The notes beneath the pieces are model-generated. The model worked only from the letters and a program-made list of their open reading frames with translations, was not told the DNA's origin and made no database searches. A stretch of 64,000 nt of DNA from NCBI GenBank assembly GCA_009699245.1, contig WLOQ01000004.1, positions 1 through 64,000 on the forward strand, given 5' to 3'. Made by a program: the position numbers and the translations under genes. The stretch comes from Actinomycetota bacterium (GTDB taxonomy: Bacteria > Actinomycetota > Thermoleophilia > Solirubrobacterales > Solirubrobacteraceae). This document shows, piece by piece, positions 38,806 through 45,475 of the stretch; position 1 is the stretch's first letter; each line of letters opens with the position of its first letter.

Positions 38806-40320
38806 TCAGGCGGCCTGCTGGCGGATGACGGGCGTCTTGGCGGCCGCCGCCTCGTCGAGGCGCCGCACCGGCGTGGTGTAGGGCGCGTTCTGGGCGATCG
38901 TCGGATCCTCGTGCGCCTCGCGCACGATCGCGGCGAGCGCCTGCGCGAACTCGTCCAGCGTCTCCTTCGTCTCCGTCTCGGTGGGCTCGATGAGGATGGC
39001 CTCATCGACGAGCAGCGGGAAGTACACGGTCGGCGGGTGGAAGCCGTGGTCGAGGAGCCGCTTGGCGAGGTCGAGCGTGCGCACACCCGTGGCCTTCTTC
39101 AGCGGCGTCGCCGAGAGGACGAACTCGTGCATGCAGCGGTCGCCGAAGGCGAGCGGCAGGTCGTCCCCGCACAGCTCGCGCAGGCGCGCCAGCAGGTAGT
39201 TGGCGTTGAGGACGGCCGTCTCGCTGGCGTCGCGCAGGCCCTCGGCGCCGAGCGAGCAGATGTAGGCGTACGCGCGCACGAAGACGCCGTAGTTGCCCTG
39301 GAACCCGCGCAGGCGACCGATCGACTGCGGGCGGTCGTCGTCGAAGCCGAAGACGGCTCCGTCACCCGTCTCGGACCGCGTGATCACCGGGTGCGGCAGG
39401 AACGGCGCGATGCGGTCGCTGACGGCGATCGGGCCGGAGCCCGGGCCGCCGCCGCCGTGCGGCTGCGTGAACGACTTGTGGAGGTTGTAATGGACGATGT
39501 CAAAGCCCATGTCGCCCGGGCGTGAGCGGCCCATGATGGCGTTGAGGTTCGCGCCGTCGTAGTAGAGCGTCGCCCCGACGCTGTGCACGAGCGCGGCGAT
39601 CTCCTCGATATTCGGATCGAAGAGCCCCAGTGTGTTGGGGTTCGTAAGCATGAGGCAGGCGACCTGGTTGTCGACCTTGATGCGCAGGTCGTCGAGGTCG
39701 ACGCCGCCCGCGGCGTTCGTCCCGACCTTCACGACCTCGTAGCCCGCCATCGTCACGGTCGCCGGGTTCGTGCCGTGCGCCGTGTCCGGCGTGAGGACCT
39801 TCGTGCGGTGCTCCCCGCGCGCCTCGTGGTAGGCGCGGGTCAGCAGCACGCCGGCGAGCTCACCGTGCGACCCAGCCGACGGCTGGAGCGCGACGTGCGG
39901 CAGCCCGGCGACCTCGCCGAGCGCCCGCTCGAGGTTCCACATCAGCTCGAGCGCGCCCTGCGCCCGCTCCGGGTCCTGCAGCGGATGGAGGCGTGCGTGC
40001 CCGGGCAGCGCGGCGACGCGCTCGTGTAGGCGCGGGTTGTGCTTCATCGTGCACGAGCCAAGCGGATAGAAGCCGCTGTCGAGGTCGAAGTTGCGGCGAC
40101 TGACGCGGACGTAGTGCCGCACGAGCTCCGGCTCGGACACCTGCGGCAGCGCGGCCGGGGTCTGGCGACGCAGGCGCGGCTCGAGCAGCTCCTGCGGGTC
40201 GCGCTCAGGGACGCCGGAGTCCGGCGCCACGAAGGCGCGGCGCCCGGCGGCGCCCTTCTCGAAGATCGTGACGGCGGCCTCACGCTGCATCGGCGTCGCC
40301 CCGAGGACCTCGGCGGTCAT
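38806..40320 (-). CDS. gcvPB: Glycine dehydrogenase (decarboxylating) subunit 2
   Basis: C-terminal half of the P protein of the glycine cleavage system; binds PLP and decarboxylates glycine onto the lipoyl arm of GcvH. The PLP lysine is in HYNLHKSFTQPHGGGGPGSG (about 262-281). Other blocks are YPLGSCTMKHNPR (about 86) and QPSAGSHGELAG (about 142). The 504-residue length fits the two-subunit form. The ATG at 40320 overlaps the gcvPA stop (ATGA); the upstream frame is shadow. It is last in the gcvT-gcvH-gcvPA-gcvPB operon. Confidence 0.96.
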   Translation of the reverse strand: MTAEVLGATPMQREAAVTIFEKGAAGRRAFVAPDSGVPERDPQELLEPRLRRQTPAALPQVSEPELVRHYVRVSRRNFDLDSGFYPLGSCTMKHNPRLHERVAALPGHARLHPLQDPERAQGALELMWNLERALGEVAGLPHVALQPSAGSHGELAGVLLTRAYHEARGEHRTKVLTPDTAHGTNPATVTMAGYEVVKVGTNAAGGVDLDDLRIKVDNQVACLMLTNPNTLGLFDPNIEEIAALVHSVGATLYYDGANLNAIMGRSRPGDMGFDIVHYNLHKSFTQPHGGGGPGSGPIAVSDRIAPFLPHPVITRSETGDGAVFGFDDDRPQSIGRLRGFQGNYGVFVRAYAYICSLGAEGLRDASETAVLNANYLLARLRELCGDDLPLAFGDRCMHEFVLSATPLKKATGVRTLDLAKRLLDHGFHPPTVYFPLLVDEAILIEPTETETKETLDEFAQALAAIVREAHEDPTIAQNAPYTTPVRRLDEAAAAKTPVIRQQAA

Positions 40321-41714
40321 GCCCGCACCTCCTGTGCCGCTGCGCCTGCCCGTTCGGCGGCGAGCGCCTCCCGCAGCACCTCGGCGAGCCGGTCGATGTC
40401 CGCGCGCGTGCGCTGCTCGGTGAGCGCGACGAGGAGGCCCGTCGGGTGCTCCTCGTAGGCCTGGCCGAGCGCGTACCCCGGGTTGATCCCCGCGTCCTGG
40501 CAGCGGGCAATGACACGGCGCACCGCGTCGAGCCCGTCGACATCGAGGGTCAGCGCGAACTCGCGCACGACCGGCTGCTCGTGCAGCACCTCGACCCCGT
40601 CGAGCGCCGACAGGCACTCCCGGGCGTAGGCGGTGCGCTGGAGCAGCAGCTCGCCGAGCTCGACGAGCCCCTCGCGACCGAGCCAGCCGAGGTAGACGAC
40701 TCCGGCGAGCGCGTTGAGCGCCTGGGAGGTGCAGATGTTCGAGGTGGCCTTCTCGCGGCGGATGTGCTGCTCGCGCGTCTGGAGCGTGAGCACGAAGCCG
40801 CGCCGGCCGTCGACGTCGCGCGTCTCGCCGGCGATGCGGCCCGGCATGCGCCGCAGGTAGGCCTCGGTCGCGGCGAAGAACCCGAAGGACGGTCCGCCGA
40901 AGTCGAGGCGGTTGCCGAGGCTCTGGCCCTCCCCCACGGCGACGTCGACGCCGCACTCCCCGGGGGGCGCGAGGATGCCGAGCGGGATCGGGTCGTACGA
41001 GCCGACGATGACGGCGGGCGAATCCTTCGCCAGGTCGGCGAGCGCCTTGGCGTCCTCGACGGCGCCGAGGAAGTTCGGCTGCTGGAAGAAGACGGCGGCG
41101 GTGTCGCCGTCGATCGCGGCGGCCCAGGTCTCGGGGTCGGTGACGCCGTCGCGCAGAGGCACCTCGACGACCTCGATGCCGTATCCGTGGGCGTGTGTGC
41201 GCAGCGTCTCGCGGCTGTGGGGATGCAGGCCGCGCGAGACGACGAACTTGCCCTTGCCGTTGGCGAGCTTGGCGAGATAGCCGGCGGCGGCGACCGCGCT
41301 CGGACCCTCGTAGACCGAGGCGTTCGACACGGGCAGCCCGGTCAGCTCGCTGATCGCGGTCTGGTACTCGAACATCACCTGGAGCCCGCCCTGGCTGATC
41401 TCGGGCTGGTAGGGCGTGTAGGGCGTCAGGAACTCGGAGCGGCTCATGAGCATGTCGATGAGCGCCGGGACGTAGTGGTCGTACATGCCCGCCCCGAGGA
41501 AGGTGACCTCGTCCTCGGCGGAGGTGTTGCGCGCCGCGAGGTCACGCAGATGCGCGTAGACGTCCTGCTCGGGGAGCCCGGCGGGGAGGTCGAGCTCGCG
41601 TCCGAGGCGCACACCCTCGGGGACCTGCTCGAAGAGCTCATCGATCGATGCGACGCCGATCGTCGCGAGCATCTCGCGCAGATCGTCCTCGGTGACGGCG
41701 GTGTAGCGACTCAC
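40317..41714 (-). CDS. gcvPA: Glycine dehydrogenase (decarboxylating) subunit 1
   Basis: N-terminal half of the P protein, which dimerises with GcvPB. The GTG at 41714 gives 465 residues starting SRYTAVTEDDLREMLATIGV after the initiator, the standard N-terminus. Family blocks: FLGAGMYDHYVPALID (about 73), TPYQPEISQGGLQVMFEYQT (about 98-117), NASVYEGPSA (about 130) and EKATSNICTSQALNAL (about 330). It starts 4 bases after gcvH. Confidence 0.95.
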   Translation of the reverse strand: MSRYTAVTEDDLREMLATIGVASIDELFEQVPEGVRLGRELDLPAGLPEQDVYAHLRDLAARNTSAEDEVTFLGAGMYDHYVPALIDMLMSRSEFLTPYTPYQPEISQGGLQVMFEYQTAISELTGLPVSNASVYEGPSAVAAAGYLAKLANGKGKFVVSRGLHPHSRETLRTHAHGYGIEVVEVPLRDGVTDPETWAAAIDGDTAAVFFQQPNFLGAVEDAKALADLAKDSPAVIVGSYDPIPLGILAPPGECGVDVAVGEGQSLGNRLDFGGPSFGFFAATEAYLRRMPGRIAGETRDVDGRRGFVLTLQTREQHIRREKATSNICTSQALNALAGVVYLGWLGREGLVELGELLLQRTAYARECLSALDGVEVLHEQPVVREFALTLDVDGLDAVRRVIARCQDAGINPGYALGQAYEEHPTGLLVALTEQRTRADIDRLAEVLREALAAERAGAAAQEVRA

Positions 41715-41718
41715 AGGC

Positions 41719-42114
41719 TCAGCCGAGGAGGGTCTCGTAGGCCGCGACGTCGAGCAGTGCGTCTGCCTCGCTGGGATCGGCGAGACGCACCTTGACCATC
41801 CACCCTGCGCCGTACGGGTCGTCGTTGATCGCCTCCGGCGCATCACCCAGCGCGCCGTTGACCTCGATGACCTCGCCGGAGAGCGGCGCGATGACCTCGC
41901 TGACCGCCTTGACCGACTCGACCTCGGCGTACGAGGCGCCCGCCTTGAGCGTCGCGCCGACCGCCGGCGGGTCGAAGAACACGACCTCGCCGAGGGCATC
42001 CTGGGCGAACCACGTGATGCCGAAGGTGGCGACACCTGCGTCGGCAGAGTCGATCCGGGCCCAGTCGTGCTCGGGGTGGTACAGGAGGTCAGCGGGGTAG
42101 CTCGCGTCGGCCAT
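41719..42114 (-). CDS. gcvH: Glycine cleavage system H protein
   Basis: Lipoyl carrier that shuttles the aminomethyl group between P, T and L proteins. The 131-residue protein has the lipoylated lysine in YAEVESVKAVSEVIAPLSGE (about 62-81) and the preceding LGEVVFFDPPAVGATL. It lies 38 bases after gcvT in the same operon. Confidence 0.97.
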   Translation of the reverse strand: MADASYPADLLYHPEHDWARIDSADAGVATFGITWFAQDALGEVVFFDPPAVGATLKAGASYAEVESVKAVSEVIAPLSGEVIEVNGALGDAPEAINDDPYGAGWMVKVRLADPSEADALLDVAAYETLLG

Positions 42115-42152
42115 GATCGTCTTTCGGTGGGTGGTGCGGGTGCGTCCCGATC

Positions 42153-43226
42153 CTACGCGGCGGACCCGCGGTAGAAGGGCTTCTCCACGACGACCGCGGT
42201 GCGCACGGTCCCGCGGACGTCGATCTCAAGGGGTTCGCCGACATGAGCGCGCGCGGCGGGCACGTACGCCATGCCGACCGCGACGCCGAGGGTCGGTGAC
42301 AGCGTGCCGCTGGTGACCTCGCCGCCGCCGAGCACCGGGTTGCCCTGGCGGGCGATCCCCGGGCCGGTCAGCTGGAAGGCGACCAGGCGCTCGGACGGAC
42401 CCGCGTCACGCACGGCGGCGACGGCCTCGGAGCCGAGGAAGCCCGTCGCCTCGCGGCAGCACCAGCCGAGACCGGCCTCGATCGGACCACACGTCTCCAT
42501 CAGGTCGTTGCCGTAGAGGTGGTAACAGACCTCAAGGCGCAGCGTGTCGCGCGCGCCGAGCCCCGCGGGCTGTGCGCCGGCTGCGACGACGGCGTCCCAG
42601 ATCCGTCCGGCGACGTCGGGGGCACAGAGGATCTCGACCCCGTCCTCCCCGGTGTAGCCGGTACCGCACACCAGCGCGGGCTCGCAGGCCATCGTCAGGC
42701 TGGCGACGGTGAAGCGCGCGGGCAGCGGGGCGTCCGCGAGCGGGGCGAGGAGGGCGCGTGCCTGCGGTCCCTGGACCGCGACCATCGCGAAGTCGTCCGC
42801 CACGTCGAGCACCTCGGCGTCGAAGCCCTCGGCGTGGACGGCGAACCAGTCGAAGTCCTTCGCGTGATTGGACGCGTTGGTGACGGTGAGGAACCGCTCC
42901 TCGTCAAGGCGATACGTGAAGAGGTCGTCGATGATGCCGCCGTCCTCGCGGCACAGGACGCCGTACTGGGCGCCGCCGAGCGGGATCGCGGCGATGTCGT
43001 TCGAGATCAGGAGCTGCAGCAGCTCGAGCGCCTGCGGGCCGCGCGTCTCGATCTGACCCATATGCGAGACGTCGAAGATGCCCGCCGTCGCACGCACTGC
43101 CTCATGCTCCTGGCGGATGCCCGCGTACTGGACGGGCATCTCCCAACCGGCGAAGGGGACGAGCTTCGCGCCCGCCGCGACATGGCGATCGTGCAGCGAG
43201 GTGCGGCGTGCAGCGGAGTCGGTCAC
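42153..43226 (-). CDS. gcvT: Aminomethyltransferase (glycine cleavage T protein)
   Basis: Transfers the methylene group from GcvH to tetrahydrofolate, releasing ammonia. The protein shows PFAGWEMPVQYAGIRQEHEAVR (in two runs, about 24-45), FDVSHMGQIETRGP (about 51), CGTGYTGEDGVEI (about 192) and ARDTLRLEVCYHLYGND (about 226). Three in-frame GTG codons compete (43235, 43229, 43226); the last gives 357 residues and lies exactly 7 bases after a TACGGT box, the leaderless spacing seen elsewhere, so it is preferred. It is the first gcv gene, 73 bases downstream of ftsZ. Confidence 0.94.
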   Translation of the reverse strand: MTDSAARRTSLHDRHVAAGAKLVPFAGWEMPVQYAGIRQEHEAVRATAGIFDVSHMGQIETRGPQALELLQLLISNDIAAIPLGGAQYGVLCREDGGIIDDLFTYRLDEERFLTVTNASNHAKDFDWFAVHAEGFDAEVLDVADDFAMVAVQGPQARALLAPLADAPLPARFTVASLTMACEPALVCGTGYTGEDGVEILCAPDVAGRIWDAVVAAGAQPAGLGARDTLRLEVCYHLYGNDLMETCGPIEAGLGWCCREATGFLGSEAVAAVRDAGPSERLVAFQLTGPGIARQGNPVLGGGEVTSGTLSPTLGVAVGMAYVPAARAHVGEPLEIDVRGTVRTAVVVEKPFYRGSAA

Positions 43227-43233
43227 CACCGGC

Positions 43234-43239
43234 ACCGTA
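43234..43239 (-). promoter_or_regulatory. Candidate leaderless -10 box before gcvT
   Basis: TACGGT, 7 bases, then GTG at 43226. It decides between three possible GTG starts. No glycine riboswitch fits in the 73-base gap. Confidence 0.45.
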
Positions 43240-43308: not shown

Positions 43309-44409
43309 CTACTTCAGGAAGGCGGGGATGTCGAGATCGTCGTCGCCGATCTCGAGGTCCTTCGGCCGCTCGACGCGCGGCTCACGCTCACGGGTCGAGC
43401 GCTCCGCCGAGCGGCGCGTCTCCTCGCGTGCGACACGCGGACGCGCGCCGCGCGCACCGCGATGGTCGAACCCGGTGCCGATGACCGTCACGCGGACCTC
43501 ATCGCCCATCGCATCGTCGATGACCGAGCCGAAGATGATGTTCGCATTCGGATCTGCCGCCGCGTGAATCACCTGGGCGGCGTCGTTGACCTCGAACAAC
43601 CCGAGCTCGCGGCCGCCGGTGATGTTCAGCAGGATGCCGGTCGCGCCCTCGATCGAGTCCTCGAGCAGCGGGCTCTCGATGGCGGCCTTCGCCGCGTCGA
43701 CGGCGCGCTGCTCGCCGGCGGAGCTGCCGACGCCCATGAGCGCGGAGCCGGCGTCCGACATGATCGTGCGCACGTCCGCGAAGTCGAGGTTGATGAGGCC
43801 GGGAATGGTGATGAGGTCGGTGATGCCCTGGACGCCCTGGCGCAGGATGTTGTCGGCCTCACGGAACGCCTCAAGGATCGTGGTGCGACGATCGACGGTC
43901 GAAAGCAGCCGCTCGTTCGGGATCACGATGAGCGTGTCGACGACGTCACGCAGACGCTGAATGCCCTCGTCGGCGGACCGCATCCGCTGCGTCCCCTCGA
44001 ACTCGAACGGGCGCGTGACGACACCGACGGTCAGCGCGCCGATCTCGTTCTTGGCGATCTCAGCGATCACGGGAGCCGCACCGGTGCCGGTGCCGCCGCC
44101 CTCGCCCGCCGTGACGAAGACCATGTCCGCACCCTTGAGCGCCTCCTTGATCTCGTCGCGCGACTCTGCAGCCGCACCGAACCCGACCTCCGGGTTGGCG
44201 CCGGCGCCGAGGCCCTTCGTCAGCTCGTGACCGATGTTGAGCTTGATGTCGGCGTCGCACATCTGCAACGCCTGCACGTCGGTGTTGGCGGCGATGAACT
44301 CCACGCCACGCAGACCCGCATCGATCATGCGGTTCACCGCGTTCGTGCCGCCGCCTCCCACGCCGACGACCTTGATCACGGCGAGGTATGTCCCGCTGCT
44401 GTCCATCAT
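43309..44409 (-). CDS. ftsZ: Cell division protein FtsZ
   Basis: Tubulin-like GTPase that forms the cytokinetic ring. The GTP-binding region shows [17 protein letters not shown] (about 14-30), the tubulin signature [19 protein letters not shown] (about 102-120) and the T7 loop [15 protein letters not shown] (about 203). The C-terminal peptide [11 protein letters not shown] (about 356-366), which binds partners such as SepF, is intact. Length is 366 residues. The start is ATG 44409 (or 44406). It is last in the division cluster, with 199 bases separating it from ftsQ. Confidence 0.97.
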
Positions 44410-44532
44410 GAGCTGTTCGTCCAACCTTCGATATAGGGTTGAGACTTGTGGCACGAGGCCGGTCCCAGAAGCCAATCCACCGTGACATCGGCGGAAATGG
44501 CTGTCAACGAGAGGGTAGCCACGCAACATCCA

Positions 44533-44605
44533 TTGCAACCACCAGACCCTCAGGCCCAGGTCGAGTGCTGAGGCGTTGCAAAGCCTCAGGCCCTAGTCGA
44601 GGGTC
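44533..44605 (-). repeat. Duplicated element with nested hairpin in the ftsQ-ftsZ gap
   Basis: Two near-identical 17-base copies (44549-44565 and 44585-44601) share CTCAGGCCC, two variable bases and GTCGAG, each preceded by TTGCAA (44533-44538 and 44576-44581). Between them CTGAGGC (44568-44574) and GCCTCAG (44583-44589) form a 7-bp stem, and GACCCTC (44545-44551) pairs with GAGGGTC (44599-44605) around it. The rest of the 199-base gap holds a TTGACA (minus strand, 44502-44507) without a good -10. It is probably a control region for ftsZ. Confidence 0.6.
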
Positions 44606-44608
44606 AGG

Positions 44609-45475
44609 CTAGGGCGTCGACGGTGCTGCGGCGGGTGCGGGTGCGAGCTCGGAGACCTGCGGCGCTCCGCCCTGCGCCTCGGTCAGTCCCCCGGCCGCCG
44701 GCCGCTCGGGGATGCGCAGATCGATGTAGGTCGCACGGCGCGCAAGGGGGTCGCGCAGGACCTGGCGGGCGGCGATCCACTTCGAGGCGACGCGGTCCGC
44801 GGTGCCGAACCGCAGGGCCGGGCCCCCGCGCAGCTGCGCCGTCACCCCGTCGCCGCCGGACCGCACCGCGGTGATGCGACGACGCAGGGCATCGGGTGCC
44901 GACGCCAGCACCGCGAGGCCGGCCGCCGCACGCGGGTCGGCGACCCGTACGCCCGTCGGGGGCAGCGTCACATCGATCGGCGGAAGGTCGGCGGCGGAGA
45001 CGCCGCGCAGGAGCGCCCCGTCGGCTGCGACGGCGACCCGCATGCCGCCTGCGCGGATGACACCGACGGGCTCACGCGGGACGACACGGATGCGCAGTGT
45101 GTGCGGCAGCTTGCGCTCGACGACGACGTCGCGGACGATCGGGTACTGCGCCACCGCGGCAAGGAGCTCGCCGCGGTCGTAGTTCAGCGTGGTCATCCCG
45201 CGCGCGGCATCGTCGAGCGCTGCGCGGACCTGGGCGGCCTGCTGGCCGCTGACGCCGCTCACCTCGACGGTGCTGACCTTCACGAGCCCGCTGTCGCGCA
45301 GGAGCAGCCAGCCGCCGATGAGGATCACGAGCGTCGACGCGACGATCATCGCCGTCCAGCCGGAGGGCCGGGGCAGATGGGTGAGGATGCGCGGGACGCC
45401 GGGGCGTCGCGGCGCGGCGGCAGAGCGCGCGGACACCTCTGGTGGTTCGGCGCGGCCGCTGCGTCTCCTGCTCAC
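44609..45475 (-). CDS. ftsQ: Cell division protein FtsQ (DivIB)
   Basis: Membrane-anchored divisome scaffold. With GTG 45475 the protein is 288 residues: a basic, proline-rich cytoplasmic N-terminus, one transmembrane helix (MIVASTLVILIGGWLLL, about 43-59), a POTRA domain (VKVSTVEVSGVSGQQAAQVR, about 64-83, through PREPVGVI), and the FtsQ/DivIB domain (about 140-260), ending in an alanine/proline-rich tail. The GTG overlaps the murC stop (GTGA). It follows murC with no murB between. Confidence 0.92.
   Translation of the reverse strand: MSRRRSGRAEPPEVSARSAAAPRRPGVPRILTHLPRPSGWTAMIVASTLVILIGGWLLLRDSGLVKVSTVEVSGVSGQQAAQVRAALDDAARGMTTLNYDRGELLAAVAQYPIVRDVVVERKLPHTLRIRVVPREPVGVIRAGGMRVAVAADGALLRGVSAADLPPIDVTLPPTGVRVADPRAAAGLAVLASAPDALRRRITAVRSGGDGVTAQLRGGPALRFGTADRVASKWIAARQVLRDPLARRATYIDLRIPERPAAGGLTEAQGGAPQVSELAPAPAAAPSTP

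What the first reader, a model, noticed from the sequence alone, without database searches (positions are those of the whole stretch)
44410..44608. Tandemly duplicated element with nested hairpins upstream of ftsZ
TTGCAA, CTCAGGCCC and GTCGAG occur twice in the same order (44533-44565 and 44576-44601), with a 7-bp stem between the copies and an outer 7-bp pairing around them. This gap is long for the otherwise packed cluster. It looks like a two-site operator or an RNA switch that sets FtsZ levels separately from the mur genes.
Basis: partly seen in the sequence, partly recalled or inferred. Interest (0 to 1): 0.5.

Follow-up and report, generated by a model that had tools for sequence, protein, structure and literature searches.

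The report
Three probable FtsR operators before ftsZ
The repeated DNA in front of the cell-division gene ftsZ is most likely a set of three docking sites for the known division regulator FtsR, placed around the ftsZ promoter, with a neighbouring site for a second regulator that is still unknown.

Summary
The repeats are real (19 of 23 identical at 36-bp spacing; 0 of 1000 shuffles reach 18). On the ftsZ sense strand each copy is an imperfect 25-bp inverted repeat of the FtsR-box type (Corynebacterium FtsR, PMC6683498). The genome encodes FtsR (NF050798, 217 bits, cut-off 150). Of 63 ftsZ upstream regions from this and related genomes, 54 carry two or more boxes; 50 of 58 other actinobacterial loci carry one. 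Box B keeps stepwise distances, and box C a nearly fixed distance, to a conserved promoter. The RNA stem between the copies is not conserved. A second dyad, YGCAA-N6-TTGCR (44522-44537), abuts box B; its only other perfect copy in the genome lies between ftsEX and a divergent peptidase gene. Verdict: a DNA operator array for a known regulator, in an arrangement I did not find described, beside an unexplained second operator. Binding, activation and the role of box C are inferred.

The parts
44581..44605 (-). FtsR-type box A, GACCCTCGACTAGGGCCTGAGGCTT (distal operator)
   Evidence: rank 1 of 63,976 window positions with the matrix from other actinobacteria, 16.1 bits; best match of the own-genome pattern search, 1 mismatch
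44545..44569 (-). FtsR-type box B, AGCACTCGACCTGGGCCTGAGGGTC (proximal upstream operator, 36 bp from A)
   Evidence: rank 3, 9.4 bits; 2 mismatches in the own-genome pattern search, as have two other places
44423..44447 (-). FtsR-type box C, AAGTCTCAACCCTATATCGAAGGTT, downstream of the predicted promoter
   Evidence: rank 2, 12.6 bits; nearly fixed distance to the P2 -35 hexamer in relatives that have it
   Evidence: 46 of 60 ftsZ regions within 1 mismatch vs 70 of 3000 shuffles; only other perfect copy in the genome lies between an ftsEX pair and a divergent M16 peptidase gene
44479..44507 (-). predicted promoter P2: TTGACA (44507-44502), 17 nt, CACGGT (44484-44479)
   Evidence: TTGACA-N17/18-TANNGT-like element at the corresponding place in relatives; not transcript-mapped; the -10 is off consensus here, and a sigma-70 consensus scan of the gap found nothing
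44512..44538 (-). possible promoter P1: TTGCAA (44538-44533), 15 nt, TACCCT (44517-44512), overlapping the second dyad
   Evidence: TAG(A/G)CT-like -10 seen in only part of the relatives; weak
43309..44409 (-). ftsZ
   Evidence: Pfam Tubulin 165 bits and FtsZ_C 117 bits; translation
44609..45475 (-). ftsQ
   Evidence: Pfam POTRA_1, FtsQ-type, 39 bits; start codon chosen by the overlap with murC

Best explanation
The element is a DNA operator array for the MerR-type regulator FtsR at the promoter of ftsZ. Two FtsR dimers bind boxes A and B upstream of a conserved promoter (P2; B centre near -85, A near -121 from a predicted start); a third binds box C near +37. Most likely FtsR at A and B touches RNA polymerase from one face of the DNA and activates ftsZ, while FtsR at C damps transcription as a roadblock or by looping to B, giving a buffered FtsZ level. 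The apparent hairpins arise because each box is itself an inverted repeat. Shown by sequence: the boxes, their conservation and spacing, the presence of an FtsR gene. Inferred: binding, activation, looping or roadblock, start sites.
For: Matrix from 29 distinct sites of other actinobacteria ranks A, C and B 1, 2 and 3 of 63,976 positions; of 2000 dinucleotide shuffles of the gap 1 reaches the best single score and 0 the sum of the three. FtsR ortholog in the own genome: NF050798 217 bits, cut-off 150, C-terminal match to Rv1828 (5ydc, E 2e-9), gene behind an OdhI/GarA-like FHA gene as in PMC6683498. 60 of 63 regions (own genome included) have at least 1 box and 54 at least 2, vs 3 of 63 reversed controls and 60 of 1260 shuffles with any. 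FtsR over cut-off in 59 of 61 genomes, own included. Of 39 named genomes searched (40 of the 80 named loci were asked for, one not held), 34 of 36 with FtsR have a box, counting two weak ones of 8.8-8.9 bits; of 3 without FtsR, Glycomyces and Dermabacter have none and a Propionicimonas MAG has one. 17 of 17 Firmicutes regions have none. Box B to P2 -35 distances fall at 29, 38-41, 48-53, 63 or 73 in 49 of 54. Box C centre to P2: mean 73.4, sd 2.1 nt; to the ftsZ start sd 22.8 (30 of 54 regions). An FtsR-type box also precedes the ftsR operon in 18 of 20 loci.
Against: No binding or transcript data for this organism. Box B is weak here (9.4 bits). The -10 of P2 is CACGGT in this genome. 24 of 54 regions have no box C at 5 bits or more; part of the own genus has only a right half, and family f4 lacks P2 and C, so C is not needed everywhere. 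Three of 63 regions lack any box (L008, which has a run of N there, L026 and L120). Two relatives without an over-cut-off FtsR (G005, G043) carry boxes, and two named genomes with FtsR (L036, L042) show none. Distances of 34 (twice), 56, 90 and 93 do not fit the steps; the step classes were seen after looking, and the periodicity statistic is nearly as high at 11.5-12.5 bp as at 10.5-11. Two further own-genome pattern hits score in the range of box B with the clade matrix (14.4 and 11.6 against 14.6) and were not examined.
Confidence: 0.83

Rival explanations
1. RNA element (leader switch or attenuator) formed by nested hairpins of the A/B region acting in cis on ftsZ mRNA.
For: In this genome the 79-nt A/B RNA folds well: z -2.2, 6 of 200 shuffles as good; the 7-bp stem is perfect. 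In 7 of 14 relatives the region also folds with z below -1, and the outer pairing keeps 4-9 of 10 pairs.
Against: The stem between the copies keeps 2-5 of 7 pairs in 14 relatives; predicted folds differ and z runs from -3.1 to +2.0; the outer pairs join parts of two boxes, which are themselves inverted repeats, so partial pairing is expected; no Rfam match at gathering scores in the window; A and B lie upstream of the conserved promoter; box B moves in steps of about 11 bp relative to it.
Confidence: 0.04
2. The boxes are operators, but of another MerR-type protein or of several regulators, not of FtsR.
For: The own genome has 5 other MerR_1 matches; binding was not tested.
Against: Same motif as the FtsR site of C. 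glutamicum ftsZ; box and FtsR mostly occur together; the same box precedes the ftsR operon. The other own MerR frames that I read look like HspR beside dnaJ and other types (by reading, no family search).
Confidence: 0.09
3. Box C is a spurious or decayed site, and only the upstream pair regulates ftsZ.
For: Below 5 bits in 24 of 54 regions, a half-site in part of the genus, absent in f4.
Against: Second-best site of the whole window with an independent matrix; where present, its distance to P2 varies little (sd 2.1) in three families while its distance to the ftsZ start runs from -114 to -22.
Confidence: 0.2

Closest known systems
FtsR box of the Corynebacterium glutamicum ftsZ promoter (Kraxner et al. 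2019, PMC6683498; abstract and the sections on FtsR conservation, ChAP-Seq, in vitro binding and Discussion read)
   Same: 25-bp inverted repeat with ACCCT/AGGGT arms in the ftsQ-ftsZ gap; MerR-type FtsR encoded behind an FHA (OdhI/GarA) gene; site upstream of the promoter (centre -73 there)
   Different: The text read describes one site in the C. glutamicum ftsZ promoter and a motif in each other promoter analysed; here three, one of them downstream of the predicted start, and an adjoining second dyad. Here ftsR follows RsiG-like and FHA genes and precedes apt, not the nuclease and second MerR gene.
Rv1828 site at Mycobacterium tuberculosis ftsZ P1 (as reported in PMC6683498)
   Same: Similar motif, homologous regulator
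   Different: There the site lies between -35 and -10; here no box does
Classical MerR-family operators (as summarised in PMC6683498)
   Same: Dimeric regulator on an inverted repeat
   Different: Classical sites sit in a 19-20-bp -35/-10 spacer; here the boxes flank a promoter whose best-fitting spacer is mostly 17-18 bp

Membership tests
FtsR operator (FtsR box) | 25-bp imperfect inverted repeat matching the actinobacterial FtsR consensus | tested here: met
   Matrix from other classes: A 16.1, C 12.6, B 9.4 bits, ranks 1-3
FtsR operator (FtsR box) | lies in the ftsQ-ftsZ gap | tested here: met
FtsR operator (FtsR box) | genome encodes FtsR | tested here: met
   NF050798 217 bits vs cut-off 150
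FtsR operator (FtsR box) | bound by FtsR in vivo or in vitro | not testable with these tools
   no binding data
FtsR operator (FtsR box) | FtsR-dependent change of ftsZ expression | not testable with these tools
   no expression data
RNA switch / riboswitch | secondary structure conserved in relatives | tested here: not met
   2-5 of 7 pairs of the inner stem kept in 14 relatives, outer pairing 4-9 of 10; folds differ
RNA switch / riboswitch | match to a described family | tested here: not met
   0 Rfam matches at gathering scores in the window
Classical MerR spacer operator | operator between -35 and -10 with a 19-20-bp spacer | tested here: not met
   boxes A, B and C lie outside the predicted P2; spacers 16-19 were tried and 16-18 (20 was not tried); 19 was never the best

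The most novel reading that the evidence does not exclude
The ftsZ promoter of Solirubrobacterales integrates two regulators: FtsR through a three-operator array around the promoter, and a second, unidentified dimeric regulator that binds YGCAA-N6-TTGCR beside box B and also acts at ftsEX. In this genome the dyad has two perfect copies, before ftsZ and between ftsEX and a divergent M16 peptidase gene, which would make it a dedicated divisome regulator linking Z-ring supply to the FtsEX step. (Odds lowered from a first 0.5 after one search showed the divergent peptidase gene in 24 of 30 loci; in the 6 loci without a recognised one the dyad is still there.)
Probability: 0.45. Interest if true: 0.65.

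Novelty: new variant of a known kind. Interest (0 to 1): 0.5.

Why it matters
[quoted passage not shown] A distant class with a conserved array, stepwise spacing, and an ftsR operon that carries its own FtsR-type box and an RsiG-like gene (Pfam RsiG, 71 bits; RsiG is recalled as a c-di-GMP-binding anti-sigma factor) offers a natural test of how FtsR acts and what it listens to. The dyad found at ftsZ and at ftsEX makes a search for a second division regulator concrete.

Tried and rejected
RNA switch: tested by Rfam, folding and pair conservation; rejected. Sigma-70 and terminator consensus scans of 44380-44640: 0 found. A first own-genome pattern had the spacer one base too long and gave 61 matches (control 7), taken as chance; repeated correctly (14 matches, control 2; in the ftsZ gap only A and B; box C exceeds the mismatch limit). 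The own genome was searched by pattern only, not with the matrix. One chance hit, L191:1502-1526, scores 10.6 bits but lies in what reads as a tRNA gene (by eye); dropped. FtsR boxes upstream of ftsE: 0 of 30. Boxes or dyad at the second ftsZ-like gene: none convincing in the own genome or in 14 relatives looked at. Attempt to find the binder of the dyad through recurrent sites in relatives: the listing was cut before the f1 genomes, and three f3 sites some kilobases from the second ftsZ-like gene were not resolved; dropped.

Literature (open-licence library only): no paper with Thermoleophilia, ftsZ and promoter together; none with the dyad as a letter string in four spellings; the ftsEX/ftsZ query gave a listing that I did not read further. 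'Not found described' for the three-box arrangement rests on (listings; words in one paper) and the text read of PMC6683498; its figures were not held, so a second box drawn there cannot be excluded.

Rows set aside: G001 and G030, without a canonical ftsZ match; L014 (13 nt of upstream sequence); L008 also (run of N); 11 of 31 ftsR loci without an rsiG-like hit, several of which still show a box nearby; only the best 30 of 59 ftsR loci of relatives were fetched. Family f4 was not part. ftsE regions: 30 of 33 f1 and 20 of 22 f2-f4 genomes with a match were looked at. The f1-f4 labels are the tool's anonymous families.

Full report
Setting. The nearest named ftsZ relatives include Solirubrobacterales MAGs. 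The dcw genes run on the minus strand; Pfam finds ftsZ, ftsQ, a murC-like Mur ligase, a murG-like glycosyltransferase, an ftsW-type gene, mraY and a second Mur ligase. ftsQ ends at 44609 and ftsZ starts at 44409, leaving 199 nt.

Observation. The repeats are as described: 44543-44565 and 44579-44601 agree at 19 of 23 positions at a spacing of 36. In 1000 dinucleotide shuffles of the gap the best is 17. The two inverted pairings also exist.

What the repeat is. Read on the sense strand and extended to 25 bp, A is GACCCTCGACTAGGGCCTGAGGCTT and B is AGCACTCGACCTGGGCCTGAGGGTC. This is the form of the FtsR box reported for C. glutamicum ftsZ, AACCCTAAAGTAAAGGTTGAGGGTA, found by ChAP-Seq and shown to bind by EMSA (PMC6683498, sections read). 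I trained a symmetrised matrix on 29 distinct sites from ftsZ upstream regions of 48 loci of other actinobacteria; by their record titles none is Thermoleophilia. Scanning the window, the three best of 63,976 positions are 44581-44605 (A, 16.1 bits), 44423-44447 (C, 12.6) and 44545-44569 (B, 9.4); the fourth scores 5.2. A matrix from 86 sites of related genomes outside the own genus gives the same order (22.6, 19.9, 14.6; next 7.7). Of 2000 shuffles of the gap, 1 reaches the best single score and 0 the sum of the three best.

The regulator is present. One MerR-type protein of the genome, L147:1939-2694, matches NCBIfam 'transcriptional regulator FtsR' with 217 bits (cut-off 150), and its C-terminal part matches the solved Rv1828 domain. 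It aligns with FtsR of six other actinobacteria at 35-40% identity over 224-240 residues, best in the N-terminal DNA-binding part (the genomes that hold L057, L106, L058, L077, L055 and L096). Its gene follows an FHA gene related to OdhI (110 bits, below that model's cut-off of 200), which follows an RsiG-like gene; apt comes next.

Conservation. 64 regions were taken (own genome, 58 relatives, 5 named MAGs); 63 had at least 280 nt. 60 of 63 have at least one box at 5 bits or more within 300 nt and 54 have at least two; reversed sequences give 3 of 63 and dinucleotide shuffles 60 of 1260 with any. In 58 other actinobacterial ftsZ loci, scored leave-one-out, 50 have one box, 4 two, 4 none; one of those without is labelled Thermoleophilia (L036). 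17 Firmicutes have none. FtsR exceeds the cut-off in 59 of 61 genomes, own included, and in 36 of 39 named genomes (40 of the 80 named loci were asked for, L051 was not held). Combining, 34 of these 36 have a box (not L036 and L042; L037 and L040 only weak ones). Of the three without FtsR, Glycomyces and Dermabacter have none and a Propionicimonas MAG has one.

Promoter and geometry. A TTGACA-N17/18-TANNGT-like element (P2) lies at the corresponding place in most relatives outside family f4. In the window it is TTGACA-N17-CACGGT. Of 62 regions examined, 54 have P2 with at most one mismatch and a box upstream (clade matrix, 6 bits or more). Their distances from box centre to TTGACA are 29 (3), 38-41 (10), 48-53 (33), 63 (1), 73 (2), and 34 (2), 56, 90, 93. 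Reduced to 39 genera (four named MAGs each counted as one) the vector length is 0.63 at 10.5 bp and 0.65 at 11 bp, with 0 of 20,000 jittered sets as high; it is still 0.61 at 12.5 bp, so the exact period is not resolved. Box C, where it scores 5 bits or more (30 of 54), sits 73.4 nt (sd 2.1) from TTGACA, but its distance to the ftsZ start varies (sd 22.8; the start is the tblastn match start). So the boxes are tied to the promoter rather than to the coding start. With a start assumed 7 nt after the -10, B is near -85, A near -121 and C near +37; this is inference.

RNA rival. The A/B RNA folds better than shuffles here (z -2.2; -1.8); in the 14 others z runs from -3.1 to +2.0, below -1 in 7, with different structures. 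The leader with box C is unremarkable (z 0.17).

Autoregulation. In 18 of 20 ftsR loci with a recognisable rsiG-like first gene, own genome included, an FtsR-type box of 5 bits or more lies in up to 220 nt before that gene (own: 6.7 bits, or 12.6 with the clade matrix; four of the 18 are below 7), against 32 of 2000 mononucleotide shuffles and 0 of 20 reversed. The two without are of family f4. ftsR itself is not among the nine ChAP-Seq regions listed for C. glutamicum.

A second operator. Where a form of it is within one mismatch (39 of 60 regions), it starts 29-34 nt after the start of the nearest upstream box in 33. The symmetric form is within one mismatch in 46 of 60 ftsZ regions (70 of 3000 shuffles), but in 1 of 75 regions of the other named loci L036-L110. 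In the whole own genome there are two perfect copies: here and at C4:6863-6878. The reversed control pattern also has two, so the number is chance-like; the places are what is striking. The second copy lies in a gap between an ABC-type gene that reads as ftsE, followed by ftsX (Pfam FtsX_ECD, 64 bits), and a divergent M16 peptidase gene. Upstream of ftsE the dyad is within one mismatch in 30 of 30 f1 genomes looked at, own included (28 of 1500 shuffles), and in 9 of 20 genomes of f2-f4, namely 8 of 8 f2 and 1 of 12 f3/f4 (20 of 1000 shuffles); 300-nt tiles of ftsR loci give 2 of 169. The divergent M16 gene is found in 24 of these 30 f1 loci, so it, ftsEX or both may be the target; in the 6 loci without it (L219, L235, L238, L242, L244, L245) the dyad is still within one mismatch. 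This was noticed first and then tested on relatives. Its binder is unknown. The 5-6-5 geometry resembles Crp-type sites (recalled, not tested).

Mechanism. Best reading: FtsR at A and B activates P2 from one face of the helix, FtsR at C limits it, and the second regulator acts beside B. Activation by FtsR is reported for C. glutamicum, not shown here. The role of C could equally be activating or a reserve site.

Novelty. FtsR control of ftsZ and its conservation in actinobacteria are known. Not found described in the searches named in Tried and rejected are the three-box array around the promoter, its spacing, the box before the ftsR operon, and the dyad at ftsZ and ftsEX.

Noticed in passing
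L210:1501-1516 (G000:C4:6863-6878) and window 44522-44537: Perfect dyads YGCAA-N6-TTGCR occur twice in the own genome: before ftsZ, and between ftsEX and a divergent M16 peptidase gene; the latter is within one mismatch in 30 of 30 f1 genomes looked at.
   Followed up: partly
L147:3505-3529 and L147:1400-3490: FtsR-type box before an operon of an RsiG-like gene, an OdhI/GarA-like FHA gene, ftsR and apt; suggests FtsR autoregulation and a possible link to an RsiG-like factor.
   Followed up: partly
G000:C16:145031-146092 (L297:1528-3099): A second FtsZ-like gene, about 58% identical to FtsZ, with Tubulin and FtsZ_C domains; 57 of 61 genomes show two or more FtsZ-type matches. No convincing FtsR box or dyad before it here.
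   Followed up: partly
L009 to L013, L015, L134, L139 (own genus): One branch of the genus keeps mainly the right half of box C (such as ATCGAGGGTC) near ftsZ, with strong boxes A and B.
   Followed up: no
window 40320-43235: Glycine cleavage T and P-type genes follow ftsZ on the same strand, where other actinobacteria (recalled) have sepF-type genes.
   Followed up: no
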